Assembly: GCA_037833965.1 (NCBI GenBank) | Contig: AP031354.1 | Coordinates: 164,001 to 228,000, forward strand | Direction of reading: 5' to 3' | Length of the DNA: 64,000 nt | Origin: Marchantia polymorpha subsp. ruderalis | Taxonomy: Eukaryota; Streptophyta; Marchantiopsida; Marchantiales; Marchantiaceae | Part shown: positions 3,517 to 64,000 of the stretch, in pieces | Numbering within the stretch: position 1 is the stretch's first letter | Layout of the letters: each line of letters opens with the position of its first letter | Notes under the pieces: generated by a model | Told to the model about the DNA's origin: nothing | What the model saw: only the letters and a program-made list of their open reading frames with translations | The model's database searches: none | Position numbers and translations under genes: made by a program

Positions 3517-4894
3517 TCTTCTCGGGTGTAGACATCTATTTATCGACCCAAGTCTCGATTTTGACACCTTGCCTGTACAGGAGAGCGTGCAAACAGCTTA
3601 GTCAACCCTTCTAAAAGAGTTGGAGATGCATCAGAAGGAAAGCGAACCTGAGTAGAACGGATTGAAATAACGGATCTGCAAGGACGGAGACATGAAGAGT
3701 CCCTTCTCAGCCCTGGTACCGGGTTATTCTTTGCTTAAGAATGATCCAGTATGGTTCATTCTTACAGCCCCTACTCCCAAGGCAAGCTTGGATATCAGCC
3801 AACTTGCCATTTCTGAATAACTTCAGATGTACAAATGAAACTATTGATACTACATAGAACCCTCAAGTTTTACAGGGGAAATACAGGTTTGTTGCTTTGG
3901 ACTCGTGGTCCTTTATGGCTCCTAAATTGTGCATACTTTCACTTAGTGTAACTCAAAGTTTGTATCTGGGAACTATTTGTCTTGAAGTGTGTTGCTAGCA
4001 ATATCAATATGTTGTACTATCTGCAGTAGACTCAACGCTAGACAAAGATGAATATTACAGAAAGCTATTGTCCACAATCATACATGAGATGTAACCTAAA
4101 AAGTACAGAAACAGGTGTGAAGAAAAGTTAAATACACATCGCGATGTAATTAGACATTCCAGGCTCTATCGTAAATTTCTACAGAAATTTAGTGTCCAAT
4201 AAATTAGTAACACACTGAAACTGTTAATTTTGTAGAAAGATATTACTCGATTTCCAGTTAGATTCTAAACAAGTGAATACATATTATGCTACCCAATTCA
4301 GTGAAAGACTTACCAATTAATAATGTATTCAACTCTTGTTGTAGGCCTCTTATATTGAACGTCAAATTGATTCTTGTCATAGATGAACAAGTCTTTAATA
4401 AAAATATCAATTTAGGTCATGAGAATTGTACTAAAATGAATGTAAGCGATATGGAGAAATTTTGTTGGATAACTAACTAAATTAAGATTTCATATTTTAT
4501 CTTTACTTGACAGTTTAATACTTATTGATAGTACGATTGGGATCGAATGGTGAAACGGAAAAATGTCTTCATTGTATTTGTAGCGATCTCGTGAATTTCT
4601 CATTGCCTGATCTAATGATTCCAAGAATTGTAAGAATCTCGACTAACATTGTACATGAGAATACCATTCCACAGCTCTAGTCCTGCATTCAATGCTTGGG
4701 TGAACATTCAGTATGAAACGCAGTCGAATGGGTTTCTTAGGTTTCATTTTAGAAGTCAAGTAGACAATTGCAGCGGATGTGCAGAAATGGGTGAAATTGA
4801 AGTAGCATATGGGATGACAGGTTGCCGCGATTCCAATCGTGGTATTACATCTATACAATTTTTTTAGTTTACCAATCACATATGGTTTTCTTTA
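3517..4894. other. MutS 3' UTR and AT-rich spacer
   Basis: No convincing coding sequence. The first several hundred bases probably hold the mismatch-repair 3' UTR. A 12-bp hairpin with a 5-base loop lies at 3736-3764 (stems 3736-3747 and 3753-3764, one mismatch). Short open frames at 4286-4480 and 4643-4879 show no family features and are treated as chance. Confidence 0.5.
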
Positions 4895-4951
4895 GAGTAT
4901 AGTAGGGTGAAGTATAATAAACCTAAACTGAGTTTTAATTAGCCGCTCCAA
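4895..4951 (-). mobile_element. Right-end remnant of a foldback-type element
   Basis: This stretch resembles the right terminal inverted repeat of the foldback element at 44303-45057: a GAGTATAGTAGGGTGAAG-like block followed by TTAATTAGCCGCTCC. Reverse-complemented it begins GGAGCGGCTAATTA, close to the GGAGTGGCTAGTTA of the full element. No matching left end was found upstream, so it is probably a truncated copy or solo end. Confidence 0.5.
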
Positions 4952-5651
4952 TAGATTTGCTCAATACTATCATGTTCACAAAGTAAATTCTACACATAAT
5001 TGTGTAATCAACGTAAATTAGTTGTAAAGAAAATTCACGTTGTTGTGCCGGAGTCACTGAAAAAGATGAACACTAAACAATAATGAGGAAAAATGTTTAG
5101 ATTACTTTTACTTGATGAATAACTTTACTTTTTTCTTATCATAATTTTCAAATCATATGGAGATGTATCACTTCTAAATAATATTACATTAGTGCAAGCA
5201 ATAAAAAGTAAGATTTATAATTACAAGGAATTTATCTATCTTTGTAAAAAATCATTCGCAATACAAGTTGTGTTGAGATGTTTCTTGGATGTACTCCGAT
5301 ATTCCAATCTATTAGCACTTAGATTTACATACGATAATCATTCATTTGTTCACTATGAATCCAAAAAGAGTATGTTTGCTTTAAGTATCGGCATGCGAAC
5401 ACTATGCATTCATATTCCAATGTCAATTCATATATATTCTAATATACCTTGCAAAATAGCTTTTTCATTGCTTTTACAAAAAAATAATAATCATTGCAAC
5501 AAATTTTTTCCTAAAATTACTTAAAATATACGTACTCATATTTTTTTGGTACAAATTTATGATATTAATTTTTTATTGATAAACATTATATAGTTTTCAC
5601 TAGTCTCCATAAATAGAAATGTCTCATATGTTATTGTTCTACTTGATGTTT

Positions 5652-5690
5652 CTAAAGGGAGCGGCTAGTTATACCTCAAGTTGACAAAAT
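5652..5690 (+). mobile_element. Left-end remnant of a foldback-type element
   Basis: AAGGGAGCGGCTAGTTATAC followed by CTCAAGTTG matches the left terminus of the 44.3-kb foldback element with few changes. It faces away from the remnant ending at 4951, so the two need not belong to one element. The interior of the element is not recognisable downstream. Confidence 0.45.
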
Positions 5691-6830: not shown

Positions 6831-7024
6831 GTTGACACGTAATGAGAAGTAATCAAATCTAACATAATTTTATCTTGGTAAAATTAAGTTAGATGATAAT
6901 TGACACATGTTATTATGATAGTTGACATGTAATGAGAAGTTATCAAATCTAACATAATTTTATCTTGGTAAATTTACCAAGATAAAATTAAGTTAGATGA
7001 TAATTGACACATGTTATTATGATA
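6831..7024. repeat. 90-bp tandem duplication; second copy carries a new 14-bp inverted insertion
   Basis: Copy 1 is 6831-6920 and copy 2 is 6921-7024. They are nearly identical except that copy 2 is 14 bp longer. The extra bases (TTTACCAAGATAAA) are the inverted complement of the bases just before them, giving a perfect 34-bp palindrome at 6956-6989. Copy 1 shows the sequence without the insertion. The preceding stretch 6066-6830 is AT-rich with nothing recognisable. Confidence 0.85.
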
Positions 7025-7630: not shown

Positions 7631-7666
7631 TTTAGTGCCTCCTCTCCTCCAAATGATGTTGAGAAA

Positions 7667-9049
7667 CTACTCCTTAATACGCTCGCGAAGGGCCATAGGT
7701 TGCAGATCCCAATCCAATTCCGTCATATTCCACCTCAATGACCAAGTCATCACATCTGCAAACCATCCCTTGGAACGTGTGGCACGCAAAGCATGAAGAG
7801 GAAATCGAGAAGCATCAAGAGATCTCACCCTTCTAATATAAGTGATGGTCAAGTAGAGAGCTTCGGCCTCAAGAGGTAGACAACCTGTTTCCGCAAGATG
7901 AATAGCATAAGGAGTTTGGTTCCTTACACCTAACTCTTCTTGTAAGAAGATCTTTTGCACCCTCTCCACATGCTCCCAACTTGTCTTCTTAATGCCACGA
8001 CCCCACACTTGTGTCTCATATAAAACCACCGGCAACACTAAACTCCTAAATATAAATTTCCTAAGACTCCAAGATACTAGATGAGCTCTTCTACATCGAT
8101 TTAACAATGAATATAAAGCTTTGTAACCAGCTTCTACTCTCTTTTGCACACAAAGTGCCCAACTATAATTCTGAGAAAAATCAATGCCTAAATATTTGTA
8201 ACTCTTCACTTGTTCTAATTCTAGTCCCTTGTTAAAGAGAGAGAACTTGGATCTAGTGCCCACAAGAATGATCTTTGATATTTCCAGATTGACCTCCATC
8301 TGATTTCGAGTACAAAAGCTAGCCAAAGTATCGAGGTGTTTCTGTAAACTAATTGCATCACGTGCTAGTAATATGATATCATCTACATACAAAAGAGCTT
8401 TGATCACAAAGTCTCCAAGTTTGACTCCTTCACTCTCACAATCATCCAACCACCTTTCTATATCATCTATGAATATTCCGAATAGAGTAGGAGAGAGATG
8501 ACAATCTTGAATAACTCCAATGGTGCTTGAGATCTCTTGAGGCTGAGAGGCATCAATCTTAGCTCGAACTGAAGTGTATAAAGTGGCCACAGCTCCGAGT
8601 AGATTAGCCGGTACTCCAATGTCTTGTAGTTTTTCCCATAAAAGCTTACGAGGAACACTATCAAAAGCTTTCTTCAAATCGATGAAGGCACAAAATAAAG
8701 CTTTCCCATTGCCCTTGGATTTCTCCCATAAAACACATAAGGCCAAAATATGGTCAATAGTGTTGTATGTAGGACGAAAACCAGCTTGGGCCTTTGCTCT
8801 CTTTTGAAAATCCTCTGTCCATGTGTTCAACTTCAATTCTACCAACTTCCCAAACAACTTGGCAAAAACACTACCAACCATGATGGTGCGATAGTTTGTC
8901 ACCACGTCCTTACTTCCTGATTTATGAATAGTAACAATCTTCCGCATGGACCAAGTTGATGGAAAACCATGAACCATAGCATCTTCCAAAAGCTTAGTGA
9001 GAACCGGTCCAATACAATCTACTTCCCACTTGATAAGTTCAATGGACAA
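7667..9049 (-). pseudogene. LINE reverse transcriptase domain (open over 460 codons)
   Basis: Motifs in order: a KSGSKD..NYRTIMVGSVFAK block, QAGFRPTYNTIDHILAL, the FIDLKKAFDSVP aspartate motif (usually FxDxxKAFD), IQDCHLSPTLF (family form GVRQGCPLSPTLF), and the catalytic box LLYVDDIILLA. The second catalytic motif is YVDD where most LINEs have YADD. The frame stays open through the RT and thumb region to LRERIKE. Upstream the endonuclease-linker frame overlaps it at about 9019-9049, so one frameshift separates the two. The long open frame suggests the element is not very old. Confidence 0.85.
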
Positions 9050-10480
9050 GCCACTAAATCTTCACATTTGCCATTTGCTAATTTTCGGAGAATAGTCATC
9101 ACCTCTCCTTCCGAAAATAATCCTGGTGTTGCTTCACAATATGACATAGATGTTGCTTCTGGAAAGAAATAGAGCTTTTCGGCAAAAGCTACCAAAGACT
9201 CGGAATCAAGAGAAGGTTTTGATGATGGTGTAGCTAATTTTCTCCAAAAGGACTTGGGATCCTTCATTAGATCTTTTGTCAAGGATTCTTGCTTTCGTCT
9301 TAAGAAAGCTCGTTTCTTAGACTTCACCAAGTCTTTGTATATCCTTGTCAAAAGAATCCGACTTTGAATATCCAAAGACCTATCAATTGACCTTGCACTT
9401 GCTAGCTTGCATTTGGAGTCAAACCATCCATTGCAAGGTAGCCCCTTAGCAATCCTAGTACTATGCCTCAAAAAGAACTTCGATGCAGAAGTTTTGAGCA
9501 ATTCTATGAGCTGTAAACTAGCTGTATGCGAATCTGGACTCCATATATTGTGAGTCAAAAGATCTTGTAGATGTTCTGCATAAAGGTATCTTTTACAAGG
9601 ATCTAAGTGAAACTTGGGAGAAGCTAAAAGAGATTGGCAAGGTGAAGTAGAGATTGATTTTGACATTGAAAGTGTGAACAAAAGAGGTGCATGATCTGAC
9701 TTAGGTTGAGGATCGAGAACATCAAAATTGGAGATCAGAGAAGTACTAACCAATGAAGACAAAAGAAAATCTATTGTGCTAGCACCGGTAGGGGAAAAAC
9801 AAGTATTGGACTTAGAGTTGGGAAAGCGAGAGGTTTCATTAAGAACCTTCAAGTTACAAGTGGCTCCAAATGTCAAAAAGTGCTATGTCAAAGAGTTTGT
9901 GGAAGGATCAAAAGAGGTTCTAGACCACAAACTATCGTAAATCTCTTCAAACATAGAAGAAGCCAATGTATCACTAAATTGAGTAAATTGAGCACAACGT
10001 ATACGAGCATTGAAATCTCCAGCAAGAAAGACATGACCTTTACTTTATTAGATTCCAAAAAATATAATAACATCTTCAATAAGCCGATGAAATGATTCAC
10101 TTCGGTTGCAAAAGCGTGTTGAGTAGATACCCATGGACAATGGTGCAAGATAACAAATTGCCAAATAGCAATAAGATCCTCCAACCACACCGAGACGTAG
10201 CCAATGATATTGTACACCGACATCTTGAGCTTCTAGATGTATGAGAGGTAGAAGATGAGACCTGATGAAAGTAGCAATACCTACTTGACCCCTTTCCGCA
10301 TGCTGTCTTCTCTGGTTCCATGTCAAACCCAGCAAGGTAAAACCTTCCAACTCAGCAATAGTATTGCTTTCATGTTCCCAAGTCTCCACAATGTTGATGA
10401 CGTCAGCCATCTTCCAAATCGGAGCAGCACTCACATACTTTGCTGTTGAAAGTCCTCGGATATTTCACACCACACCCTTA
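9019..10480 (-). pseudogene. LINE endonuclease domain and linker, frame-broken
   Basis: The minus strand begins with the typical endonuclease start NIRGLSTAK (about 10444-10470), preceded by TGA where the family normally has the W of WNVRGL. It continues with ETWEHES..LEGFTLLGL and later the LAGDFNARI motif near 10010-10040, and ends with SKSDHAPLLF-type text (here LDPQPKSDHAPLLF) in the frame at 9019-9876. The parts lie in at least two frames, with a shift between about 10050 and 9876. This domain nicks target DNA in intact LINEs; this copy is dead. Confidence 0.78.
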
Positions 10481-10490
10481 GCTTCTCGGA

Positions 10491-16224: not shown

Positions 16225-16362
16225 TCATAAAACTCAAAGGTAAGCTCATACTTTTGTATTTACGACGAATCTTCAAATCTGCACTAAACACTCTCCGGTT
16301 ACCGGCGTGAGTAGAAATCCAAGGTCCAAACGATGTTCCCCACATGCACCAGCCTGCTGCAT

Positions 16363-16421
16363 GCGCGAAAGAAGTTTTTGAGGCTCTGGTGCCACCAGGG
16401 CCTCAAAAAATTCTTTCGCGC
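16363..16421. repeat. 29-bp near-perfect inverted repeat (hairpin)
   Basis: The left stem starts GCGCGAAAGAAGTTTTTGAG and the right stem ends in TTCTTTCGCGC. The arms are 29 bp with two mismatches and essentially no loop. It lies between the two unidentified minus-strand coding-like segments. A small foldback, a microRNA-like precursor and a template-switch product are all possible. Confidence 0.75.
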
Positions 16422-16575
16422 AGCTTAATGTTTCTTATCTTCATGACTCCATACATTTACTGGTCTAGCTACTATAACTCACAAACATGTTACAGAGCAG
16501 AAAATTTGTTAGTAGCCAAAACGTTTCGTCTCCAAACGAGACACAAAATACAGTGATGCTTTCAAGTTAGCTAAC

Positions 16576-18050: not shown

Positions 18051-20892
18051 TTCGCCACACATCTGTCTCCCATGGACGCCATCTGAGGTACATGTATTAC
18101 CCATAGAAATCCTACACTTTGAACCTCGGCACGTTTTGCATTCGTCTGGAATCTACTGGTACTGGCATTGTTTTCAACAGTATATTCGGTGAAGTGTACG
18201 CTCCCAGCTTTCACCATTTCCTCGTGGCTTCCATTTACTGACCTTTGGTACTTGTAGTGGACATTTCTATTGCCATCGGAGGAATTATGGATGACGTTGA
18301 AAGCTACATCCTGACATCACAGTTCATTTTGTCCGCTCGGTGAATGGCAGGCTCTATTATTCGGAAGAAGTGAACTGTGGTACTGGAGAGCCTCTGAGAT
18401 TCTTCCAATGTCCAGACGCAAATTCTACGAACTTATCAGCCGTGCCCACATTTGCTTACTTGCTCGACTCAACTCTTTCCCGTTCTAGTTCCTCGATGTC
18501 TGCTTGACATTGATTTCCGCTTCAGCGGTCCTTTGATTAAGCTGATCAAGTGGAGTTCGAAATTACTGTGCCGAAGTTTGTCACATCTCTGTACATTCAC
18601 GAGCAAACTTCCCGGTGTCAGAATCTGCCATCTACATTTCCGCGAACGAGTCTCCATAACTTGGAGTTAGAAGAAGGCCTGGCGACACTTGTACGCTAGA
18701 TGATGAAGACCATTCGGATCTTTCATCACTGATGAATTCCTCTCAAAGATTAGGCATTTAGTTTTAGAATGCCTAATCTACAGATTCCTGTTCATCAGTT
18801 TTGCTTATGAGCTGATAAACCATCTCCGTCAAGTCCGCGTGCTCGAGCTTTTAGCTTCCCAGGACATGCTATGAGGAAGAGTTGGTTCATAGCTTTTCGG
18901 AAGCGCTTCGAATTGGCTGTGCACTTGCCGTGTATCACTGGGTTGCAAACTTTACTTCTCTTCACTTCTCAGCTGAGTACCCAGTCAAGGCGTGTCATGG
19001 TTGTACATGGACTGCGTAGTCTAAGTAGATTTGTATAAACACGTAATTAGTGTCTGTTTCATTCTATAAATAAATCTTTGACCTTGAACGTGGATGTATA
19101 CGTGGTCTTAATGATTGGTTGACAAGATTAGCTGCAGTTATGTTGGTCGAGTTTAAGATCACGAGGAAGGGCATCGACTGCTTGAAACTTGACATATATC
19201 TTCTGTACATTTCTTTTGCGTTCCTGCTTGTGGACTGCAAAGATGACAGCGAAGATGCCAAAGAATGGATCATTCTGTAATAAGCAAGAGCGGACGGAGT
19301 AAAATGTAAAATGTTCGGGTTTGGAAGCGCTTGAAATGTTCCACTTTCAGATTTCTCCTGGACAGACCGTGAGAAGAGCTGTGAGAACACATTCATAAAT
19401 CCTTAAACATCAACTTTCTTCAGGACTTTACACGATCGTGCGACAAAGTAGAACTGAATCGTGGCAAACTACTTATTACAAGATTTTTTAAGTTTATGTC
19501 GAGATGGTGAAAATGCAGAAATCTCTGTCAAGCATAATTGTTCATGCTTTGACGTTACACATTGTGTGCAGAATGATAATAGCCTGGTGAGACCTGTGAG
19601 TTGGTATTTCACAAACTATAGATATACGAACACTAAATGTTCGTACATAGTTACACTGTGTGTGTTTCATACTTCCGCCTACCTTTCAATATTACATGTT
19701 CATACATTGATGTGTTTGTACAGGTCGCTGTAGTCTAAGATGCCACTTGCCCATGCTAATTTCATCCACGCCACAACCAAATCGTTAACTTTGTGGAACA
19801 GTGATCTCTTATTGCTTCGGTTTATTCTTCGTGATGTATAATCCATCGCCATAGTTAACTAGCCAAAAGAGATGTACAACGACAGTGTTTTGCAAAAATG
19901 TTTACTAATCTATCTAATCATCTACTAATCTCCCATTCCAGTTCGGAGAAATGTGGTTATTACTGTAAACAAGTATTCCGCTCTTATAAAAATATCTTGG
20001 GGGTTTGAAAAACGTTGCACTGGTTACTGTTAGAATGTACTAAATCCCTGGATGCTGAGTAGCGCAGGAATGGTAAAAGGGACTGTTCGGCCTTTTGTTG
20101 GTTCCGTTCAGCTTCTAGTCGTGGCTCATTCTTTTCTCCTTCGTCTCTCACCTTCAGGAGGGAGCGAAGTCAAAGACATGTGGGCTCTGGAAAGACAACA
20201 GTTTAAGCACGAAGGCCTCCATTTCTGCGCACAGCTCGAGTTTCAAGTTCATAGACAGTGACTCAAACACAAACCTGACAGTCTACTGAAAAACATCAAA
20301 TGCACTCAGGATCTAATAAGTGTCTCCAACTTAGAAAAAAGAAAAGTCAGGGGAACTGCAGAAGTTGAAAATTTGCGTGAGGATGCACAATGTCTTCTTG
20401 ATTATTTATCACAATACTGAGAAGTAGTAAAGTACAAATACATACATGTGGACAACGCGGTCTCATGGCGCTGTACATCTTTTATCGAGTTCATGTATAC
20501 AAGACTGAGTGGGAGCCCTCCATTGCTCATGCAGCTAAGAAGATGCAATATTAGAAGCTCGTGGAGTCACGCCAGACACACAAACAGGAAATAGATTTCA
20601 ACCAGCAATTGACGCGTCTCGGTTTCACCTGACTAACTGCGTCATTGCCCCAAGCTCAAAGATGAAGACGCAGTAAACCGCAGGCTACGTTACCACCTAG
20701 ACCCCAAGGCGTCCTATAAGCCCTTGCCGCCAGCGCAATACAGGGTGATGGATCCTGAAGGTCTTCCGCGTATCAAGATGATTGTTCGTGCGATTAGCTC
20801 GGCAACGCTAGAATCTTATCTCCACCGTCAATGGCCAGAAAGAGGAGGCGATCGGTCAAGAAGTGGTCCGCAATTCGGAACGCCATCGACGA
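18051..20892. other. 3' UTR of the small gene and unassigned spacer
   Basis: The 3' UTR of the small gene probably occupies several hundred bases after 18050. A 12-bp perfect hairpin with a 9-base loop sits at 18747-18779 (stem AGATTAGGCATT). The remainder has only short open frames without recognisable domains. GC content rises after 20650 towards the next gene. Confidence 0.4.
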
Positions 20893-22002: not shown

Positions 22003-22042
22003 CAATTTTCAGTTCCAGTTGAATAACTGGAACTGAAAATTG
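22003..22042. repeat. Perfect 18-bp inverted repeat, 4-base loop
   Basis: Stem CAATTTTCAGTTCCAGTT (22003-22020), loop GAAT, exact reverse complement at 22025-22042. It lies in AT-rich intergenic DNA and has no U-run or gene end beside it to suggest a terminator. Confidence 0.9.
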
Positions 22043-23084: not shown

Positions 23085-26000
23085 ATGGCTCAATTTCTTG
23101 CAGACCGTGCATTGAATTTGACTTCGTCAAACATCGTTCACCTTTCTCGCCTGGCCGAGAAATTCAACGCCATCAATTTGGCTGAAGGTATGTATGTAAG
23201 AGCGACTCTGGGTTTTGGGTTCCACGGTTGAATTTCTTTCTCTGGTTTCACGCCGCGACCTTGTCTGCGAGACTACATTTGAGCCGCTTCGACCTTCGCC
23301 CTGACATCTCAAGAATTTTCACATGACTGTTTCCATTGCAGTCTTCACAATCGAGTAACTTTTTGGGCCAGTTATATATTACTCTGTACATGACGATACT
23401 TACTCTGTTTCGAGCTGTTGTAACGCAGGTTTTCCAGACTTCCCAGCTCCTCCTGCGATTAAGAATGCAGCAATTGCAGCTATCAATGCCGACTTCAATC
23501 AGTACAGGTGAGATTCAGCACGTCTTCCCCATACGCCGAGTTGCATCGTTGTGGGCTGCAAGTGCATGTGCCACTTCGTTTGTCAGCTTGAACATAAACT
23601 TGAGGTCCGCTGCATCTGCTCTGTGATTATTGTGAATGGGTAGGCATGTGCAGGGTCTCTGCGACCAGGTGGCAGCGATGTTCGAGACGACGCAAGGTCT
23701 GAAAGTGAACCCCAAAACTCAAGTGACCATCTGTTGCGGCCAGTCAGAAGCCTTGGTGGCAGCTGTTCTAGCAGGTACATCCATGTAGATCATCAGTTGT
23801 TCTCATCCACTGAGAACGAAACCGAAAGACAGAACCGTTGTGCATGCACTAGAGGTTTTCTACGTCAGCCCCCGAGGGTGACACGTTTCGCTTATTCTAA
23901 ACTTGTTCACTGCAAATTGACTCACAGATAGTAAGCATGTAAAAGTCTTGGAGATTTAGGCGGTTCTTGTCACCTGCATTCACGAATTTCTTGCAGTTAT
24001 CAATGAGAGGGATGAAGTTGTACTGCTGGATCCTTCATACGAGACCTATGAAGCATCTGTCAAGTTGGCTGGAGCTAAGGCAGTGAGTTTACATGAACCA
24101 TGTAGGGCTGATCAGAATCATTCTGAGCATAATCTATTATGCAGATCATAATTTTCTGTAGGCACGTATATATCCGCATAGTCTCACGTTTTGTTACATG
24201 TGCAACGTTTGTAATGTGATGAGACCACATTGTATGATTGGTGATTGGAGCAGTCCTGTCTGTGGATATCTTGTTAGACTTCGTATGTGATGAGGCGCAC
24301 CATGAGCCACGCTGACCACTTGTCTGATATGTCAGCAGAAGCACGTCTCTTTGGATCCTCCGAACTGGAACTTGGATATACTACGACTAGAAAATGCCAT
24401 GGGCTCCCGTACAAAAGCTGTCATTGTGAACAGGTTCGTTTCATCCTACGCTTGGTCTTTGTATGTTTGTGAAATGCATGAAGGTAAAATATTATCTATC
24501 TTGTCCAGACCTACCCGTTGATTGCTTACTCGGGAAGTGTATCTGGATATCCGTCTCATGCCATATTCTGACTTTGTCCTGAAGAATTTCCAGCAGGAAG
24601 TAAAGATGAACGAACAACGTTAAACATAAGTATTGACTTCTCAACTATTCAGTCCTCATAATCCAACAGGAAAGGTCTTCAATGAAGAGGAGCTTGCAGA
24701 TATTGCCAAGCTTTGCTGCAGATTTGACTGTCTTGCAATCACGGACGAGGTAACTCATGCAATCTAAAAGAGTAATTTTATCGTTTGAGATCTTTTTGCA
24801 ATCAAGATCTCTGAGTCACTGGTCAAAAGCCGAAAAAAGTAATTTTGATCTTATGCATACAAGGGGTATCGACTCAGTCTAATACTGAGTCAATACCCCT
24901 TGTATGCATATTCCTTTTGAGCATAAAAGGTCGTCAATTGACTGCTGTCAAGAAGCAAATTTGAATGATTATTTACACTCAGACGAGTGTCACTTAAAGT
25001 TACTACCTTCTTTCACAAAGTGTTCAAATTCTACTGTATGAAAAGTAGAATTTGATAAGAGGGCTGTTGTTGCCATATAAGCAGGTATATGAGCACCTCG
25101 TGTACACAGGAACAAGACACAGGAGTCTAGCAACGTTTCCAGGCATGCAAGATCGCACAATCGTGACATCATCAATTTCAAAAACTTTCAGTGTCACAGG
25201 TCCTTTCCGCCTTTACCCTTTACCCTTACCCTTACCCACATAATCTTTCACGTACAGTACTTACTGAAAGTTAGATGAGAATCTCTTAGCTGACAAGTTT
25301 TTAGATCAAGTTTGCTACCTTTAACCTGTGAGTGACCAACATGAGTTACAATTCTGCTTACAATCTGCGCTGTTCTTTATCATATGCTGAGCCTTACATG
25401 GGAATGTTCACGTCTTAATTTCTTTAGTAGATCGGGCTCCGTATTGTACTTTCGTTCAAAGGGTTGCACACGTCTCGGTAGCATTGATTATGAAACAGAA
25501 TCTGGACAAAGCCATAGCAACTCAGTTCTAGATTCCGTGCTATGTCTGAAGTCTGGTGGTATCGAGTGCTATTTCTATTGTTTTGTTGAGCCTGTGCAAC
25601 GTAAAAGGGAAATATGAGAAATCTGACCTGCTAGACTAGCTCAAGATGCTATCTGCACGCAAAGAGTTGAACTTCAGGAGTTTGTAATACTTCCCTACTC
25701 TTTATTTGTGCAGGTTGGCGTATCGGCTGGGCAATCGCACCAGAAGCAATAAGTTCTGCCATCGGTAGTATTCATGAGAAGCTAGTGGATTCTGCCCCAG
25801 CCCCATTTCAGGAGGCAGCAGTTTCCGCCCTTTCCAGTGGCCCGGAATACTACCTAAATCTACGAGCAGTATGTGTGAACTGGATAATAAGTGCATAGCT
25901 TCTTTCATTCACTTCTGTACTGTGATCATTCTCCTTAGCAGAGCAGTGCCCAACGTTTGTACCTCACCTAGTGGTTGTCAGATTTATCTGTCAAGAGAAT

Positions 26001-30274: not shown

Positions 30275-31915
30275 CCAACCATCCAGATCAATCAGCACGC
30301 ACGACAGTGACAACACTGAAATAACGTGATTCATCTTCCATAGGCTACGTCCATGGGCAAGAGTAAAAACTTCACTGAAGCATAGATTTATACACGGCCT
30401 TCAAAGCCAAGATCTACTCTTTGATGTTCGCTCTCTAAGCGCAATCCTGAACTGTACGTAGTGAATGATTCTTCTCTCTTATATACAAGAAGAGATAAGA
30501 TGCACATCTTAGCTAAACTAACCACAATTGACTTTCCTAACCATGGTTATTACTAACTAGAGTTAATCCAAGATAGAATTAAACTAACAAACTCCCTCTT
30601 GACTCAACTCTTGAAGAAGTAACTAATGTAATCCACATGTATCCATGCGGAAAGTTCTAGAAAGTAAAGCTAAATCACACTTTTCCTTTATAGCTAAGAG
30701 TTGAACTAAGCCGTAGCCGGAAAAAATTGGATGAAGAATACTTGTACAAAAGTTACTAGATTAACCATTCCTATGCAAAATTTGCAACTTTGCACAATGC
30801 TTGGAAAAACTTTCTAATGAAATCACTTTGGTCATGCGTCGGAAGGGTTGAATTTACCATGAATTTTGATGAGCTTAAGTGCACTATTTGACATTGCTTG
30901 TCTGATATTGGATATCAATGTGCGATACCCTACCATCCATCAGATTGTTTGATGCTAGATGAAGTGTCACTTTGGCTGTCATAGTAAAGATTCACATCAT
31001 TGTGTGGTAGCCCATCTCACTTACCAACTTGTTCAACCAAATTGCCTCCTCCACTATTTCCAATGTTGCAATGTATTCAGCTTTGCATTAAAAAATGCAT
31101 TTTTTTAAGTGTAGATCTCCAACTTATGCATCCACCAACAAGGATGAAAGCATACTCAATTGTTGATCCTCGCTTATCCAGATCTCCTTCATAATCAGCA
31201 TCAACATACTCCAAGAGCGAACTTGCATTGTTTGATTGTGCATCAAACAATAATTCAATATCAAGAGAATCCTTGATATACCTCATTATTCACTTCACAA
31301 CTTTCCAATGCCCTTGTCCAAGATTTGACATGTGCCTACCCATCTTTCCAACTGCATATGCTATATCATATCTAGTGAGTAGCATTAGATACATAATGCT
31401 GCCAAGTGCACTTTCATAAGGAATAGAAGACATCAATCACTTTGCAGTTACATCAATTGGACATAAAGCTGCTGAAAGCTTAAAATGTGCACCTAATGGA
31501 GTAATTACAACTTTAGCATTTGACATGTTAAACCTAGCAAGTGCTTTCTTTGAATACTGCGTCTATGTCAACCATAGTTTGCTTGATGATTCTATCCTAT
31601 TGATCTTCATGCCTAAAATACGCTTAAAAGTACCTAGATCTTTCATATTAAACTCAAAACAAAGCAAGATTTTGAGTTTAATAATCTCATACCTATACTT
31701 AGCAACAATCAGCATGTCAACTACATATAGCACGAATAATATGAAGCCAAAACTTGTGTAATTAACACGCTTCACGCTTCATTAACACACAATGATCATA
31801 TGCACTTTGTATGAAGCCCTGCGTATGCATGAACTCATCAAAATGTTTGTTAAGTTGTCGGGAACTTTGTTTAAGTCCATACAAGGATTTAAGCAATCGA
31901 CAAACCAAACATTTT
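30275..31915 (-). mobile_element. Ty1/copia LTR retrotransposon fossil, 3' part (RT/RNase H and 3' LTR)
   Basis: Broken copia remnant on the minus strand. Reverse-transcriptase text (NPCMDLNK, YVVDMLIVAK, FNMKDLGTFKRILGMKI) at about 31560-31910 is followed by RNase H text (DADYEGDLDKR, GGCISWRSTL) at about 31080-31190. A probable 3' LTR lies at about 30275-30725. The LTR call rests on its position after RNase H and on a second related block at 39948-40310. The 5' half of the element is absent: the copia text stops at about 31915, where the coiled-coil repeat family begins. It carries several breaks and is clearly old. Confidence 0.8.
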
Positions 31916-33170
31916 GTTTGAGTGAACGCATTGTTCCGTTGCTGAAGTATATGGACATAAAGATGGTAAAGTACTCGATGCCAACGTCTTTGGCGGATTT
32001 TTATGTAGAGTTGATGCGCAGAAGGACAAAGTCAAAGGAGGCAACAATCGTTGGGATGACAAAACAAATCGAAAACTTGACTTTCGAATGTGCGACCATG
32101 ATAGATACCTTGCAGGAGCAAGAAGAGCAACTTCAAGCGAAGGAGTTGGAGTGCAAAGATCTTCGGCGAGAGTTAATGGCCAAAAAGACCCTTCGTACAC
32201 TGAAGAAACATGATTGCAAAGGGTGAAGTCTGCGCAATTCAGAAGATAAAGGAGGAACCTCAAAACGGATTGGAGTAGTCTTGGGAAGGAGTAGCGAAGG
32301 AGTTGACGAAGCCTCTGGCGACACATGAGCGGTTGATGGTTGTAGAAGTAGCCCTTTGAGAGGAATGATTATCTCTCTGTAATGCTACCAGGTCTTCGGA
32401 GTTGGAGCGCAAGAGAGTGTTGGATGCAGATTGCAGAAGTTTGCAATCTCAATTGTCGGCAGTTGAGAGTCAGTTGGTAGTTGTTCATGCGAAATTGATG
32501 GAGACAGAAGTGATCATTTGATGTGTGGAGTAGGAGACAATTGTTGGCTTGAGAGCTAGAGTAGAATGTTGTCTTCGAGGTTATGTGGATTACGAGATCC
32601 AAATCACGAAGTGGTTGAAGTTAGATTCGTTAGAGCGTAGATTGAGAGTGTTGAAAGCCGGTAGGATAGTAGGATACAGATAGTCAGGTAGAATAGTTAG
32701 TTTTTTCATTTCTAACTCGGAAGAGACTAGGGAGAACTTAGAGTTAGAGCTCACTCTAGTTTTGAGTATGATAGGAGTAGTTAGGTGCACTGTGGATGTG
32801 ACAAATGTTGCGTCCGTGGCCGTCACATCTAATGGAGTCTCGTAGCCAGTGGGTGGTGCCTCCGGGTGTTTATTGTGAATATATTAGATCAAGGCTCTGC
32901 CTTTGGGGAACTTTTCCATGAGAGTATATACTTTCATGGAAAAGTCCCCCAAAGGCATTCTACCTTTAGTCTACATTGCTCTGCACGTCGTGAGTTATGC
33001 GTTTTGTCACAATGCAAGAGTTGTTTTGGTTTATTGAAGATAGCGCATCTGAACTGGAGTAGACATCCTAGGTGTTTTGAGTGATGCATAATGTAGCTCA
33101 AGATTTAAGCAAACTCGTAGAGTGCGTGCTCGGTGTAGCAACCTGAGCGTGTATCTTTGAAAAGTTTTTC
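31915..33170 (+). repeat. Repetitive coiled-coil ORF family, copy A
   Basis: The + strand text starts ERIVPLLKYMDIKMVKYS, then DFYVELMRRRTKSKEA, then ECATMIDTLQEQEEQLQAKE and LECKDLRREL. It is a heptad-rich coiled coil followed by a long non-coding tail with landmark phrases (ATCAAGGCTCTGCC, CTCTGCACGTCGTGAG, AAGCAAACTCGTAGA) shared with copy B. The same protein pattern is in copy C on the other strand. I recall many predicted Marchantia proteins of this kind. Whether it is a host gene family or the cargo ORF of a mobile element cannot be told here. This copy is degraded. Confidence 0.65.
32898..32957. repeat. 24-bp inverted repeat in the tail of copy A
   Basis: Stems are 32898-32921 (starting TGCCTTTGGGGAACTTTTCC) and 32934-32957, with one mismatch and a 12-base loop. 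The matching part of copy B (about 37110-37145) has only the first arm. Confidence 0.85.
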
Positions 33171-42440: not shown

Positions 42441-43930
42441 CAAGATTCTGCCTAAGTCAAGTTACCACTAATTGAAAAAGTTATGAATCATTTACTCTAG
42501 TAGATCATAATTCATCTTATTCAACTTTATTGCCTGCAAGTAGAAACACTACTCCATCCGAGAGGTATACAACAAGGACTCAACTATTCCTAACTTGGCA
42601 TCTACTACAAAATCCACTATTTAATCTACTTCTAAGTATTCTTATACTAAAAGTTTAAATTCCTATACATCTACTCCTTAAACTTCATCGTTTCAAAAAA
42701 AATTTTGAAAAACTACGTTACCACAATGATACAATGGTTTTGACTTTTTTATCGAGCTATGTTTTTAGAACTAGCAAAAATATTTACATATTATCTTGTA
42801 TTTTATTTATATGGAAATTAAATTAATCTTTATAACACACTTATATATAAGATTATAACAAAAAATTTTATAAATAGATTTTTTAATGAACATCCATATT
42901 TATATGTAATAGTTATAAGTTTTTAAATTCTTACATTATTTTACTTAAATTACTAATTTTGAGAAAAATATTTTGCTTGATGATACTTTCAAATGTTAAA
43001 TTTTCAAATTATAAATTTCTTAAAATTTTTTATGTGTTTTGCTCTCTTGATTTTATTTCTGTTCAGATTAATTGCTAATTTATTCTAACATAATATTGTT
43101 GAAACCTTAACTATACCGACATATTTTTGACAGTTAAATTTCAATTTATATTTTTAAAGGTAACTTATCAAGTCATAAATATAGAAGTTAAAAGCCCCAA
43201 GATCCAAGCAAAAATCCCTTTGGGAATTTAGCTTTTAAAAAAGTCTTTGAAATTGAAATTGAAAAATTTTATAATAATTACTTTCAATTAAAAAAATGAT
43301 GAGTATTTTGAATCACATTTTATAATCATACAATAGTGAATGAAAATGTATTGCATCTAGATGAATTTATTGTATTGTGTGATTATTACCTAATTATTGT
43401 CAACTAGAGATGTTTTACATAAACATCTCTAGTTTTGTTTGTTAATACATCTATGTATTTTGCATGCTTTATACTTCATTCAAACTACTATTCAGTTTAG
43501 CGACTAATGAAAGTATCATGATGATTCTTCAAACATCAAAGTAGTGATGTAATTGAATGTGAAAAAGTTATATTACACTTATTATGTCATGCTTGTTTTC
43601 AATAGAAAAATAATCTTATATCATAATTCACTATTGCATCTTTTTATGATTCTTAAAGTTGTATTGCAACTATCTGAACTATGTAAAAAACACCAAAAAA
43701 TTTCTAAGATTGGAAAATAGTTCAAATATATAATTTTTTTCATCATGCTTTAGTTTCTAAATAGATGGAAATTCTTCAAATTTCATAATCAAATTATTAT
43801 CAAATCTATTCATGAAATTTTATAGTTCATTGACGTAGCGAACATCATTGCAAGCATATGGCTTGTCTCTCAAACTAAAAATCTCTAATTATGATAGTAT
43901 AATATAGTTCTATACTTTTCATCAATGAAT
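42441..43930. other. AT-rich spacer with one perfect hairpin
   Basis: No gene seen. A perfect 14-bp inverted repeat (stem AACTAGAGATGTTT, 5-base loop) lies at 43402-43434. The rest is AT-rich low-complexity sequence. Confidence 0.5.
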
Positions 43931-44226
43931 TGCTATAGTGCTCATAGATCTAGTTCTATTGTTTAAGCAAAAGACATAATCATGAAAGTCAAGCTCAAAA
44001 GTGTTGCTATACTGCTCATAGACCTAGTTCTATTGTTTAAGCAAAAGACATAATCATGAAAATCAAGCTCAAAAGTATTGCTATACTGCTCATAGACCTC
44101 GTTCTATTGTTTAAGCAAAAGACATAATCATGAAAAGCAAGCTCAAAAGTATTGCTATACTGCTCATAGACCTAATTCTATTGTTTAAGCAAAAGACATA
44201 ATCATGAAAATCAAGCTCAAAAGTAT
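43931..44226. repeat. 74-bp satellite, four tandem copies
   Basis: Units start at 43931, 44005, 44079 and 44153 with TGCTATACTGCTCATAGAC and run through AAGCAAAAGACATAATCATG. They differ at only a few positions. A GTGTATGTATGTG / (TTTA)n microsatellite follows at 44226-44275. Confidence 0.9.
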
Positions 44227-48980: not shown

Positions 48981-49021
48981 AACCGAGTACTTAATGGCTA
49001 AATGCCATTAAGTACTCGGTT
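48981..49021. repeat. Perfect 18-bp inverted repeat, 5-base loop
   Basis: Stem AACCGAGTACTTAATGGC, loop TAAAT, exact complement at 49004-49021. A further hairpin lies about 270 bp away at 49290-49325 (stem ACCATGGATTTGATCC, loop GTTA, one mismatch). The two stems are unrelated. Confidence 0.9.
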
Positions 49022-49325
49022 CATAAGTGCGCGAAAAAATCTCTTTTTTTACGCCCGAACCTGTGAAAAGAATGGATAGAGGTTCATGTGTTCAACCGCA
49101 AGACTTTGTCCTTGCAAGAGAAATCTCTCTCTCTCTCTCATCTTCTTAGACTTGTCTGCAAGACAACTCTGTATTGCTTCATAATTGCAACGAGAAGTAA
49201 ATTTAATCAAGGGATTGGTAAAACGCATGACTAAACGCGTCCACCAAGGCTTTGGAGTCTGGGTGGAAATGTGCTGAATTCATATGAACACCATGGATTT
49301 GATCCGTTAGGATCAAACCCATGGT

Positions 49326-52300
49326 TTTCATACATAAAGATTTTACACGCATCCATCTCTGAATTATATACCATGTCTATTGATGAAAGCTTTTATACAT
49401 GGACTGTTAAGTCAATTACATAATCATATTTTAGTCATAGGTCTCTTGAGTTAATATGCTAGTCTTGACCAGTTTGCAGTTTCAATATAAGGAATTTGCA
49501 AATCGTGGGGGATCCACTTATAAATGTGTGTGTAGCTACTGAAGGTTGGAGTAGACTTCCACGTCGCTTCATGTTGGACTTTCCAATATTCCCGAATAAT
49601 CTTCGCCGGCTGACGATGAGCTTTCGTGTGACGAGGAATTTCACATGTTGTGTTTCACCCAGCCAGTTTCGAATGTGGTCCGGACGCAAAAGTGGCTCGA
49701 ACATGGTCGCTAGAGGCTTGTTGCTGCCGTTTGACTCACACACCTATGACGCCAACGAGAAGAAACGGTGTCGTCAGGAGCGCGCGCGGATGCACAATGT
49801 CGTTTTATCAGTTAACTAAAAATATGTAGCGCAGAAATGCGTGACCCACAATGTATCATATACTCGTACAAATCACGAGGAGCGTTGTTTCGTACAATAC
49901 ACGGATCGGTCGTACACGAGGAGTCTCCAAATGTGAAACACAGAAGGACCTCCCGTGTTGGGAGGGCGGGGATGCTGGCCGGGATTCAGAGAAAACCGGC
50001 GACTGCACGGACATGAGAGAAGGTGCCGGTCAGACGCGAGATTTGGCAGCTCGCGAGTCCCGGGAGGAATTATGGCGTCCTAGGTCCTCAGACCCAAGTT
50101 CCTGACTTTCCATCTTGTTCTGGCTTCTCCGCAGTGGGCATGTGGGCACTGGGCGAGGCCTTCTCCGGTTGCGATTCGCGGCCGCAAGAGGCTTGCCAAA
50201 GCCAAGCAAGCCAAGGCCTGCGTGCCTTACGTTCATGAATCATACACATCACATAAGCACGGTGCGTCAGAGCATAATAATACTGTAAGCTGCAAACGCA
50301 TTGCCCTCACTGATTTATTGTTGCGGGGTCCGCAGAAACTGCTCCACAACCTGTTGGGCCAGCGAGCTTCGCATACTGTAGCCGCCACTGGAGTCGGCGG
50401 GTGAGAAGGTCAAGGACACTGTCCTCTGATGCCACCTATCAAAATGTCACAAGGGTGCAAAGCCAAGGGAGGGGAGGTGACGGGATGGGAGGGGAAGGGA
50501 AGGCGAGATCTGTGCTGGTGCGCAAGAAGAGGCCGACCCATCGGCTCTTCTGCGGGCTGTCTGTCATCCATAGCCACAGACTCTCGCCCTCGGCCGTCCA
50601 GCTATCACGACGCACTGTGTAGTTGGGCAGGACTCGGCAGCTTCTCACGCTTGCGTGCCAGGGAAACTGTGATGCACAGAGATTGTGCTTAGAGTAGAAA
50701 ACGACAATCTTTGACTGGGTAAGGTTTATAACAATCATCTTGAGTTTCATTTATTATGTATGATATATATGCAATCAAAAGATGATCCATCAATACCTTG
50801 TCGATGACGCAAATGTGCACTTATTGTATGGACATATGTTCTTACAATGATGTCCACCACTCTGCCCTCCTCTCTTCGACCAACATATTGCATGTCCAGT
50901 GTGTTTAGAAGAAAAAACATTGAGTGGTAATTTATTTTAGGACTGAAATATGTCTTTATCGGCAAGTGTCGCGGTTTTAGGACAAACAAGTCGACAACCT
51001 CGATCAACAAGTCGAGGTTGTGCCAACTCAAACTTTCCATTTTTGCGTCAATCAGTGAATCTCTGCCAGAGTCAGAAATATCAATCTGACAGTCGTTGAG
51101 TATCTAAAAACTAAATGTAATGTGGGTGCACGTTTCCAAACGTGTAATCTGACGACCTCAACATCTTTGTCATCCAAGACTGTACTTCAAAAGTATACGT
51201 ACAGATGGCTTACGTAAATACAATTTGTCAAATTGGCACCTGTTGATAGAAGGAAGGGTCAAAGTGGCTCCATCTCCGGACAAGCTGCTGATCCTCCTGC
51301 TCATGCTTCCTCGGAATCCATCCATCAGAAACAAGAGGAGCACAGTGGAGTTTTCGGTGAGGATAAAAATTGTGAGCTCGACATTGTTGCTCGTGGGTCG
51401 GGTTTACGTTCAACTTTTGAACGGGTCTTACAGTTGTTGCTTAGAAAGGCAGGTTAGCTAGCCTCTGGGACCTTTACAGTATTAATATTGGGTTCCGTAG
51501 GTCGGCCCCGATTTGTTTATGTGTGGACGTTGAGAAGCTGGCCTAATGCACACAAAATGCGATGTACGGTGGGAGGACGATGCCTCCAAGTTCACACTTT
51601 CATAAAATGTAGTCGTATTTCTGCTTGAGGTCGGCCTACGTCCTGGTCACAAGAACGAACTACGTGCAGACAAAAGTCCTCCACTTGTTCGCTTCTTGCA
51701 GGTTGAGTCATCATGCCGCCAAGTCTTTTCCCAAATCTAAAAGATACCTTTCGTCTTAGAGTACGAGCACTAATTGCTCGTTGCAGTTGTTTGAAAAGTC
51801 TAACATAACCCCAGTTAGAATCTGAGACCGCAGGAAGGCCTCGTTCCAGTGCGTGCGTCTTTATAAAATCCTTTGGGATTATAATATCTTCCATCGGGAG
51901 AAGTTGGAACATTTCCCAACTCCATTTGTACGTTTGAATGGAATCATGCCACGGCATATTAAATCACATACATTCGGGAGCATGGGACGAGAGGACCGGG
52001 CCATTCGCTTCTAGGACTCGTGAGGAGAAGTTGCCGTAACCCTTCAAGGCTCTGGCTGGAGTCGTGCCTTCGAAAGGCTCGGTGTAGGGTTTGAATTCAG
52101 GATTGTCAAAGGCTTCTCGCGGGTCACAGCTCGTAATGAGAGCAGGTCGGGGGAGCATAGATTCCGATCCCTGGACGAAGTCGAGTAGCGCCCACCCGCA
52201 TCCACCGACTTCAGTGCAGGAAGATTGCTCGTGGTCGCTCGGACGGGGATGCGGTAGAGTTTTAGCTGCCGCATTCGTAATAAACTACAGTTTACTAGTA

Positions 52301-53281: not shown

Positions 53282-53284
<3 letters not shown>

Positions 53285-61500: not shown

Positions 61501-64000
61501 CACGACACCATTTCCCACCCTACCGCCGGAGTCACGACTGGTGAGCGGTTCACGGACGATCACGGATCCAACCGAGCTAATCTGCTCGGTCCAAAACTCC
61601 ATGGCAGCGGAATACATCACTCACTTCACGATCCGATCACTCGCACAGATGCTTCTCTGGCAGAAAGATCTCAAACATACGCGTCTCGTTCGACCTCAGT
61701 GGATCCGAAATCTGATTCACGCTGCTATTAATTGAATACTTACAGCCACTGCGGTGGTTCAAGCCCCAACATGAGCAAGCTTTTCGTTCACGACTCACGA
61801 AACTCGTCATTGATATCTGTAAATGTTTATTGCATGTAATCAGACTATCCGCATTTCAAGATCCAGGCTTATTTTTGCCTTATTTTCCCCCGCAGGCAGC
61901 TTGAAATCGTCTATCAGACGACAAGCAGCTCTGCTTTCAAATCCTTGAAATGCGACCATAGTAGCCATAATGCTGTGATAAGCTCCAGATGTTGTAGATA
62001 ACGCGAGAAGACGCTCGTCATAATCTCCTCAAGTTGTAATGCTGGGAATTTTTCGATCAGAATGAAAAGATTAAAATATTCCAAGCTGCTTCCATAAAAA
62101 CATCTTGTGATTTTAAGAAGTTGTTAAAATGACATTCTTTCCACTGATATAGGAAGACATGTAAACGTCAGACTTGATGACTGGCGTGGTTTGGGCAGTT
62201 ATAATCCGAAGGAAGTTATCAGTTCTATGGACAACCTTTCCAACCCCATACTTTTGTAAATGAAACCTGAGCCGTTATTTAATGGTATAAAAGCACCACA
62301 GAGGCATTATCACCTAGCGGAGATATCAAAGCTCGTTTATCAAACCAAATGACCTCATACTGTTGTCATTCTTTGTAAGTCATGTCTCTCGTATTGAGAT
62401 TGCTACGTATCTCAAGATCCACTGGCTATAATATCTTCTCTTCCTTAATTTTAATGCCTCACAACTACCAAACATACAACGGCTGTAACTAACGTCAACC
62501 CTTGACTTACAGTCATCTAGGTCCAGTTTCCTGGTCTCTTCAGCTTCTTGACTGCGTGCCATCGGTGTTGAAGACGAGTCATGAAGAAGGTTGGTGAGTT
62601 AAATGTCCCCATTGTAGACTGTTTTGGTATCACATTCAGATGCAAGTATCAGTTGGAATAAGAAAACCTTCAAAATAAATATTTATATATTTATATATAT
62701 TTATTCTGAAGGTTCTGACTTTTTATATCTTCTACTAGTTTTATTATCAGATTTCAGAAATAGCTGCCTACATCAAATTCTTGTGTTGTCTTACTATAAA
62801 ATCAAAGCATTTGCATTCTCCGGTATTGTGAGTTTCCAGGTTTTTAAATGGTCCGTTGATCGAGAAGAGATTTAAACACAGCGGAAGAAAAACATTCGAC
62901 CATACGAAGCCCACTAAGAGTCTAATGAACAGTATAGGACATTTACATCTATATTCCAGAATTGCAATAATGTAAACTTAGCTTAGAGTGGACGAACGGA
63001 TCATCAAAAGTCTTGCCAAGTATAAATACTGAAATGTTTCTCTAGTTTCCTAATAGATTTGTGCACCATTTAGGAATGTGAGGGTATATATAAAATTATC
63101 TGAAATGTCTATTTCAGATAATTTTAAAATATTGATTATCAATTACTGACAAGAATCCTACTAATATATTTTCTTTTCAGTTGGTATTCCTCCATTTCAT
63201 GCGTATCTACATCTTGTGGAATCCCTCACTATCAAGTAGAATTTTTAAGCAGTAAGTCAAAACGAATCATAGAGAACTAACGACAACCATAGAGTGAAAA
63301 GTAAATCATTTAGAAACATAATCAAATAAGTGAATAGTCTAATAAAACAAATAATCTAGTTTTCTTCATTCTTCCAAAAAAATAGAAATATTCTTCTTAA
63401 ATTATTTCAATTATGCAGATTGAATGTTAAAGGATATGAATATAAAAGAGATGATGTAACATGGTATTCAAAATACACGTAATTTACCATTTTGTCAGAA
63501 TACTGATATCTAATATTATTTTATTCATTTTTTAAACATAGGAAAATATAATTTTTAATGTGTATGTTGCTAAAACTAGCACTTCAAATTTCGTACTCAG
63601 TAAAAATATCTCAGTCAGTTTTTAAAAAATCATATTTTTTAATAGTAATAAAAATAATAGTCATACTATTTAAGCAATTTTATACAACAGGTTGCTATTT
63701 GACAAATGCCGTAAAAAATAAGACTTTGGACCTAATAGAATTGTTAATTGGTCAACTGTAACGTTGCATTATCGACGTCAGTCTTATAAACTGATCAGCC
63801 AAGATCTTCTTGTGTTGAATGATGGCTTAAACCTGAAAGGATTAGTTTCTTCACTGACTAAAATTTTATTTAGGTATTGTTTACGATCCATACAATTTTA
63901 TTTAATACTATCAATTCTTCAATTAGTTTTACAACGTAAATTAGAACAACAACGATAAATCCATGAACATTTAAATATATTAAAATAATGGATTTGGTAT
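61501..64000. other. AT-rich spacer with two hairpins
   Basis: No gene seen to the window edge. Hairpins: 62665-62714 (18-bp stems starting AACCTTCA, one mismatch, AT-rich loop) and 63092-63125 (perfect 15-bp stem AAAATTATCTGAAAT, 4-base loop). Open frames at 63558-63958 are AT-rich and featureless. Confidence 0.5.

What the first reader, a model, noticed from the sequence alone, without database searches (positions are those of the whole stretch)
3736..63125. Thirteen near-perfect short-loop hairpins with unrelated stems across the window
Inverted repeats with stems of 11-29 bp and mostly 0-12-base loops lie at 3736-3764, 6956-6989, 16363-16421, 18747-18779, 22003-22042, 24853-24909, 25025-25054, 32898-32957, 43402-43434, 48981-49021, 49290-49325, 62665-62714 and 63092-63125. 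All are in introns, spacers or repeat tails. The stems share no sequence, so they are not a MITE family. A perfect 18-bp stem with a loop of 10 or less is expected well under once (about 64,000 x 10 / 4^18) in random DNA, yet two exist. The simplest reading is an active mutational process that inserts an inverted copy of adjacent bases. Use as small-RNA sources is a second possibility.
Basis: partly seen in the sequence, partly recalled or inferred. Interest (0 to 1): 0.72.

Follow-up and report, generated by a model that had tools for sequence, protein, structure and literature searches.

The report
Inverted-copy mutations leave perfect hairpins
The short-loop DNA hairpins in this plant window are real and far too many for chance, and comparison with sister copies elsewhere in the same genome shows that several arose when the copying machinery folded back and wrote a reversed copy of the neighbouring bases, a known kind of error at a density ordinary for plants.

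Summary
With stem score >=12 and loop <=12, the window has 14 hairpins against 0.15 per shuffle. Eighteen 10-kb pieces from elsewhere in the genome hold 19 against 0.5, so the excess is not special to the window. It is confined to short loops: 31 hairpins with loop 0-12, 17 with loop 13-300. By a published survey's measure the density is ordinary for plants.

Relatives within the same 241-Mb genome were sought for all 13 listed hairpins. Nine had none at the search's sensitivity. Of the other four, three look derived by inverted copying. For 32898-32957, all 18 listed relatives spanning the site are 17-37 nt shorter, and the three read lack the right arm. For 48981-49021, three relatives have the right arm but not the left. 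For 6947-6998, a tandem twin lacks 14 nt and none of 28 family loci has the hairpin. One, 18747-18779, is inherited in a dispersed family.

The best mechanism is foldback or template-switch synthesis, at 48981 at a join between two repeats. This is a known kind of mutation. Small-RNA use was not testable.

The parts
6947..6998 (.). 26-bp palindrome (loop 0, 1 mismatch) in the second of two tandem copies of a dispersed repeat; derived, 14-nt insert at about 6969-6982
   Evidence: tandem twin 6857-6894 lacks the insert; 21 of 27 spanning family loci lack it in alignment, 6 align otherwise; 0 of 28 family loci have a hairpin of score >=12 near the site
6857..6894 (.). twin of the above without the insert (16-bp quasi-palindrome, loop 6)
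32898..32957 (.). 30-bp stem (2 mismatches, loop 0) in a dispersed repeat; right arm derived
   Evidence: 37 other places listed (40 of 62 candidates scored); 18 span the site, all shorter: 16 by 27-30 nt, one by 17, one by 37; slices L067-L069 lack the right arm
48981..49021 (.). perfect 18-bp stem, loop 5; left arm is an inverted copy of the right arm at a junction between two unrelated dispersed repeats
   Evidence: three relatives carry the right arm and their own shared left flank; the window's left flank belongs to another repeat (L053, L054)
18747..18779 (.). 12-bp stem, loop 9; inherited hairpin of a dispersed family (8 other places listed)
   Evidence: hairpin present in both slices read (L070, L071); L071 carries a paired change G->A / C->T
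16362..16422 (.). 30-bp stem, 2 mismatches, loop 1; no relative found
22003..22042 (.). perfect 18-bp stem, loop 4; no relative found
24852..24910 (.). 27-bp stem, 1 mismatch, loop 5, in an intron of an aminotransferase-like gene; no relative found
25024..25055 (.). 12-bp stem, loop 8, same intron; no relative found
43402..43434 (.). perfect 14-bp stem, loop 5; no relative found
49283..49332 (.). 23-bp stem, 2 mismatches, loop 4; no relative found
62665..62714 (.). AT-rich 23-bp stem, 2 mismatches, loop 4; no relative found
63091..63126 (.). perfect 16-bp stem, loop 4; no relative found
3736..3764 (.). weak hairpin (9 bp, mismatch, 3 bp); no relative found
31646..31683 (.).
   Evidence: L044 relative (79% identity) already has an 11-bp stem

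Best explanation
Many of these hairpins are mutational scars. During replication or break repair a 3' end pairs with a few complementary bases just upstream on its own strand, or briefly jumps to the complementary strand. It is extended as a reversed copy of the adjacent 10-30 bases and then rejoins the original template or another broken end. One event thus turns a short quasi-palindrome into a long stem with a short loop. Shown here: the excess; its restriction to short loops; and, at 32898 and 48981 in the window and at L049:9757 and L047:5699 outside it, one arm present and the other absent in relatives; at 6947, a 14-nt insert absent from a tandem twin. At 48981, L049:9757 and L047:5699 a fold of a few bases with a 5-nt loop already exists in relatives without the arm (3 bp in two of the three 48981 relatives, 5 bp at L049, 2 bp at L047). 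At 48981 the left flank comes from a different repeat, so there the copy sits at a rearrangement join. Inferred: which polymerase acts (Pol theta-type end joining fits 48981 and L049; quasi-palindrome template switching fits 6947 and 32898), and that the nine hairpins without relatives arose the same way. A minority are inherited with repeats.
For: Excess over shuffles in the window (14 against 0.15) and in 180 kb elsewhere (19 against 0.5). Loop limit: 31 hairpins at loop 0-12 against 17 at loop 13-300, about 40-fold per loop size. 32898: 37 other places listed, 18 spanning, all shorter, 16 by 27-30 nt, one by 17, one by 37 (recounted, whose automatic figure for C8:8514632 is an artefact of a second nearby row; the row itself gives 28); the three slices read have the left-arm side and no right arm; 12-nt exact inverted match, reached by 1 of 2000 shuffled inserts. 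48981: relatives L050-L052 carry loop, right arm and a common upstream of their own, but no left arm; the window's upstream matches L053 and L054; the insert's 14-nt inverted match is reached by 0 of 2000. L049:9757: 8 relatives' matches end inside the hairpin and the three read lack the outer right arm; 13-nt inverted match, 0 of 2000. L047:5699: its one relative lacks a 12-nt arm; 0 of 2000. 6947: tandem twin lacks the insert, 21 of 27 spanning loci lack it, 0 of 28 have the hairpin. POLQ-type domains are present: HTH_61 at C7:7257736-7258002 and DNA_pol_A at C7:7262268-7265193, same strand, taken as one gene by inference. Foldback inverted insertions of about 5-34 bp at breaks are documented in yeast (PMC11724301, abstract and one section read), and Pol theta stem-loop extension starts from 2 bp (PMC11292364, abstract and passages read).
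Against: Nine of the 13 listed hairpins have no relative, so their origin is not tested. Of 11 hairpins with informative relatives (window and samples), 5 are not derived: 18747, 31646, L047:6398 and L045:2350 are shared with relatives, and L044:3608 looks ancestral and was lost in the window's copy. Two more (L037:9088, L039:5547) have relatives that decide nothing. For 6947 the exact inverted match of the 14-nt insert to its own flank is only 6 nt (969 of 2000 shuffles reach it), because the insert overlaps the palindrome centre; the case there rests on the twin and the family. Six family loci (L021, L022, L027, L028, L030, L031) carry an AAAYTTACCTAGG stretch that partly resembles the insert; five of them and L029 are the 6 of 27 that align otherwise, and L021 is among the 21. 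No priming stem could be seen for 6947 and 32898. L047:5699 has a single relative and so no outgroup. L044:6108 is a loose alignment. Family lists were capped (40 of 93 candidates scored, 40 of 62). No outgroup genome was available.
Confidence: 0.78

Rival explanations
1. The hairpins are tiny MITE or foldback transposons, or termini of transposons.
For: 18747-18779 is a hairpin shared by a dispersed family (8 other places); several hairpins lie inside dispersed repeats, and at L037:9088 a dispersed repeat begins at or beside the hairpin's right edge in 32 of 39 listed rows.
Against: Stems share no sequence; 9 of the 13 listed have no other copy at the search's sensitivity; in three repeat-borne window cases the relatives lack the hairpin; loops are 0-12 nt, leaving no element body. 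Target-site duplications were not tested.
Confidence: 0.08
2. The hairpins are kept by selection as precursors of small RNAs or other structured RNAs.
For: Perfect stems of 18-30 bp could feed a Dicer pathway (recalled); 18747 shows a paired, pairing-preserving change in L071.
Against: No Rfam match at any hairpin at gathering thresholds; 18-bp stems are short for plant microRNA precursors (recalled). The paired change can itself come from template switching (PMC8794818, abstract read). No RNA data were available, so this is weakly tested.
Confidence: 0.08
3. Chance, composition or simple-sequence effect.
For: Hairpins of score 9-10 are partly chance (window, score >=9: 28 against 5.7); 62665 is AT-rich; 3736 is weak.
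Against: At score >=16, 7 in the window against 0 in 200 shuffles; complexity filter applied.
Confidence: 0.02
4. Sequencing or assembly artefact (folded reads).
For: Assembly errors can create palindromes in principle; no reads were available.
Against: Arms carry mismatches (2 in 30 bp at 16362 and 32898), some hairpins are inherited and diverged in families (18747, 31646, L047:6398), and the density is near that published for plants.
Confidence: 0.03

Closest known systems
Short-range template switch mutations / quasi-palindrome mutations (PMC8794818 and PMC7954356, abstracts read; PMC8604942, start of abstract in a listing)
   Same: Reverse-complement copy of adjacent bases, absent from relatives, creating or perfecting a stem; colinear flanks at 6947 and 32898.
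   Different: Described there for RNA genes, great apes and yeast; here in plant DNA by paralogue comparison. The 48981 case is not colinear.
Foldback templated insertions at double-strand breaks; theta-mediated end joining with stem-loop extension (PMC11724301, PMC11292364; Arabidopsis fillers PMC10923293, passages read)
   Same: Inverted insert of about 10-30 nt, with 2-5 bp of possible priming fold present in relatives in three cases, joined to a foreign flank at 48981; the L049 filler holds extra short direct repeats.
   Different: In the yeast system the priming repeat was an imperfect 10 bp with a 41-nt loop, whereas the loops here are about 5 nt. No dependence on any enzyme was tested.
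Perfect inverted-repeat excess across genomes (PMC13155455, passages read)
   Same: With arms >=10 and spacer <=8, the window gives 5.02 and the 180-kb sample 5.72 bases per kb, spacer included, against a reported Plantae mean of 4.22; enrichment over dinucleotide shuffles is reported for all domains and viruses, with Streptophyta the highest effect size among eukaryotes.
   Different: The words 'template switch' do not occur in that paper's main text. Whether its measure counts the spacer was not checked; arms only give 4.39 and 5.08 here.

Membership tests
Template switch (quasi-palindrome) mutation | One arm is a reverse-complement copy of adjacent sequence and absent from relatives | tested here: met
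   6947, 32898, 48981 in the window; not met for 18747 and 31646, which are inherited; untestable for nine
Template switch (quasi-palindrome) mutation | Flanks on both sides stay colinear with the ancestor | tested here: inconclusive
   met at 6947, 32898 and L047:5699; not met at 48981, where the left flank is another repeat
Template switch (quasi-palindrome) mutation | Arises during replication | not testable with these tools
   no mutation-accumulation or genetic data
Foldback insertion at a break (Pol theta-type or alternative end joining) | Short complementary bases next to the loop already present before the event | tested here: met
   3 bp in L050 and L051 for 48981 (L052 has a T-G pair at the innermost place, then AATGG/CCATT), 5 bp at L049:9757, 2 bp at L047:5699, each with a 5-nt loop; not visible at 6947 and 32898
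Foldback insertion at a break (Pol theta-type or alternative end joining) | Second end is a rearranged flank joined with little or no homology | tested here: met
   48981 only: junction to the repeat of L053/L054 with one extra base and about 2 nt shared (read by eye)
Foldback insertion at a break (Pol theta-type or alternative end joining) | Depends on a Pol theta or Pol delta type polymerase | not testable with these tools
   only presence of domains shown: HTH_61 and DNA_pol_A on one strand of C7 within about 7.5 kb
MITE / foldback transposon | Same terminal sequence at many loci | tested here: not met
   stems unrelated; 9 of 13 listed without a second copy at the search's sensitivity; exception 18747
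MITE / foldback transposon | Target-site duplication | not tested
   no systematic test of flanking duplications was made
Plant microRNA precursor | Match to a known family or evidence of processed small RNA | tested here: inconclusive
   no Rfam match at the hairpins at gathering thresholds; no RNA reads available

The most novel reading that the evidence does not exclude
In this plant genome a single foldback/template-switch process is the dominant source of perfect short-loop hairpins, leaving roughly one stem of score 12 or more per 8 kb (31 in the 244 kb examined), or, by extrapolation, some tens of thousands genome-wide. It would continually supply ready-made stems in introns and repeats from which small-RNA genes or structured RNAs could be drawn.
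Probability: 0.35. Interest if true: 0.6.

Novelty: new member of a known kind. Interest (0 to 1): 0.4.

Why it matters
Perfect inverted repeats are reported to be over-represented in plant genomes, but the passages of the survey that I read count them without resolving how single ones form. Here the same genome supplies hairpin-free relatives, so a few loci can be read as before-and-after pairs. They show one arm being written as a reversed copy of the other, in one case at the join between two unrelated repeats. That makes the rate, the priming rules and the enzyme behind hairpin birth in plants testable with ordinary population data, and it offers a source for new stem-forming RNAs.

Tried and rejected
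Rejected: chance; one transposon family of hairpins (stems unrelated, nine of 13 without copies); known structured RNAs (only a U4 snRNA; no tRNA). The window as a special place: rejected, since 18 other 10-kb pieces hold 19 hairpins, though the window is about twice as dense.

Led nowhere: L037:9088 and L039:5547 have relatives, but the alignments do not decide between derived and inherited. Its letters were not fetched. Five sampled hairpins (four of the L045 array, one of L041) were not searched genome-wide. Paper searches for plants or Marchantia with template switching (20 of 155 listed, 1 of 1, 12 of 33 listed) showed no paper on short hairpin birth in a plant among the rows listed; this is titles and starts of abstracts of an open-licence library only. 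A primate work on microRNA birth by template switching is recalled and did not appear among the rows listed.

Denominators: window hairpins of score >=12, 14; sample hairpins of score >=12, 23, of which 4 AT repeats were dropped by a complexity filter, leaving 19; one more (L034) is also TA-repeat based, leaving 18. Eleven of those 18 were searched genome-wide: 5 without relatives, 2 derived, 2 inherited, 2 undecided. Two more (L044) were compared with local sequence only: one insertion in a loose alignment, one ancestral and lost in the window's copy. Lists were capped (40 candidates scored of 93, 62, 237 and 75); 3736, 62665 and 63091 were searched again without the large family (2 of 2 candidates scored, no relative). 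L039:677 was searched only in capped lists.
Full report
What is there. All 13 listed intervals form the hairpins described. A centre-out scan with ungapped arms, match +1, mismatch -3 and loop <=12 gives 15 hairpins of score >=11 and 14 of score >=12. It adds 6857-6894, 31646-31683 and 36553-36586. Against 200 dinucleotide-preserving shuffles in 500-nt blocks the window has 14 against a mean of 0.15 at score >=12, and 7 against 0 at score >=16. With a complexity filter the figures are 14 against 0.08 in 100 shuffles.

Where it comes from. The window lies at C5:164001-228000 of a 241-Mb, 9-contig genome. Eight contigs are 24-33 Mb and one is 5.6 Mb (lengths printed). That layout resembles Marchantia (recalled, not tested). 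Protein matches in the window include a MutS domain V, a decarboxylase domain (Orn_Arg_deC_N) and a reverse transcriptase. Eighteen 10-kb pieces from elsewhere hold 19 complex hairpins of score >=12, against 0.5 in 30 shuffles. The excess is therefore not special to the window, which is about twice as dense as the sample.

Loop limit. In 244 kb, 31 hairpins have loops of 0-12 and 17 have loops of 13-300, which is 2.38 against 0.059 per loop size. Terminal inverted repeats of transposons would not be expected to show this; a process needing a tight fold or a local jump would.

Ordinary density. With perfect arms >=10 and spacer <=8 the window has 5.02 and the sample 5.72 bases per kb, spacers included, or 4.39 and 5.08 for arms only. 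The survey reports a Plantae mean of 4.22, enrichment over dinucleotide shuffles in all three domains and viruses, and Streptophyta as the strongest eukaryotic effect (PMC13155455, passages read).

Paralogue test, derived cases. (a) 32898-32957: 37 other places are listed for this segment (40 of 62 candidates scored). Eighteen span the site; 16 are 27-30 nt shorter than the window, one 37 and one 17 (recount, with one row corrected by hand). The three slices read (L067-L069) keep the left-arm side and lack the right arm. (b) 48981-49021: three relatives (L050, L051, L052) share the loop, the right arm and some downstream bases, and share with each other a different upstream; none has the left arm. 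The window's upstream instead matches another repeat (L053, L054). Two relatives hold a 3-bp fold (GGC-TAAAT-GCC), the third a T-G pair followed by AATGG/CCATT. Extension from such a fold along the right arm gives the window's left arm, followed by one extra base and about 2 nt of shared sequence at the foreign flank. The insert's 14-nt inverted match is reached by 0 of 2000 shuffles. (c) 6947-6998: its tandem twin 6857-6894 lacks 14 nt. Of 28 family loci read (two of the 30 loci given were the window itself), 27 span the site; 21 lack the insert in alignment and 6 align otherwise. Six loci, L021 among them, carry a stretch partly like the insert, and none of the 28 has a hairpin of score >=12 there. 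The exact inverted match of this insert alone is not significant. (d) Outside the window: L049:9757, where 8 relatives' matches end inside the hairpin and the three read lack the outer right arm but hold a 5-bp core; L047:5699, where its one relative lacks a 12-nt arm; and, more loosely, L044:6108 against L021.

Paralogue test, cases against. 18747-18779 belongs to a dispersed family (8 other places). Both slices read have the hairpin, one with a paired substitution that keeps pairing. 31646-31683 is inherited with a copia-like fragment. L047:6398 and L045:2350 are shared with relatives. L044:3608 lies in what looks like intact copia coding sequence and has been lost from the window's copy (read by eye, motif recalled). 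L037:9088 and L039:5547 are undecided. Thus of 11 hairpins with informative relatives, 6 are derived (one loosely) and 5 are not.

Mechanism. The anatomy is that of foldback or template-switch synthesis. Foldback inverted insertions of about 5-34 bp at breaks are documented in yeast (PMC11724301, abstract and one section read). Pol theta extends stem-loops from two terminal base pairs, and inverted repeats are often present at its repair junctions (PMC11292364, abstract and passages read). Fillers copied from flanks, mapped there in forward and reverse-complement orientation, are a mark of this pathway in Arabidopsis (PMC10923293, passages read). Template switching as a maker of perfect stems is described in PMC8794818 (abstract read) and short-range switching in great apes in PMC7954356 (abstract read). 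POLQ-type domains are present together on C7 of this genome. Which enzyme acts here is inferred. I favour break repair for 48981 and L049, and replication-type switching at a quasi-palindrome for 6947 and 32898.

Verdict. It is a new set of examples of a known mutational kind, at a density normal for plants, with direct before-and-after evidence at a few loci.

Noticed in passing
window 18747-18779: Hairpin of a dispersed family (8 other places) with a pairing-preserving double change in one copy (L071); could be a transposon terminus or 3'-end structure.
   Followed up: partly
window 20530-20663 (-): U4 spliceosomal RNA match above the Rfam gathering score.
   Followed up: no
window 7667-10464 (-): LINE-like reverse transcriptase stretch (RVT_1 in 7670-9061; the rest from open frames); the repeat carrying the 6947 palindrome lies just downstream on that strand and may be its tail.
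   Followed up: no
window 30762-31803: Copia-like retrotransposon remnant, about 78-79% identical to L044; the window's copy has lost the arms of a hairpin that L044 keeps in apparently intact codons.
   Followed up: partly
window 43929-44226: Four-copy 74-bp tandem repeat at 95% matches.
   Followed up: no
L045 (G000:C5:25000001-25010000): Part of a long repeated region on C5 (copies near 24.89-25.31 Mb, several about 10.8 kb apart, and near 31.2 Mb) that holds five of the sampled hairpins.
   Followed up: no
L049:9757-9830: The filler beyond the hairpin holds repeated ACATTAAC units, as if the end was extended more than once; 7 of its 8 relatives lie near an end of C6 or C7.
   Followed up: partly
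L037:9088-9127: A dispersed repeat begins at or beside the hairpin's right edge in 32 of 39 listed rows, so this hairpin may also sit at a repeat junction.
   Followed up: partly
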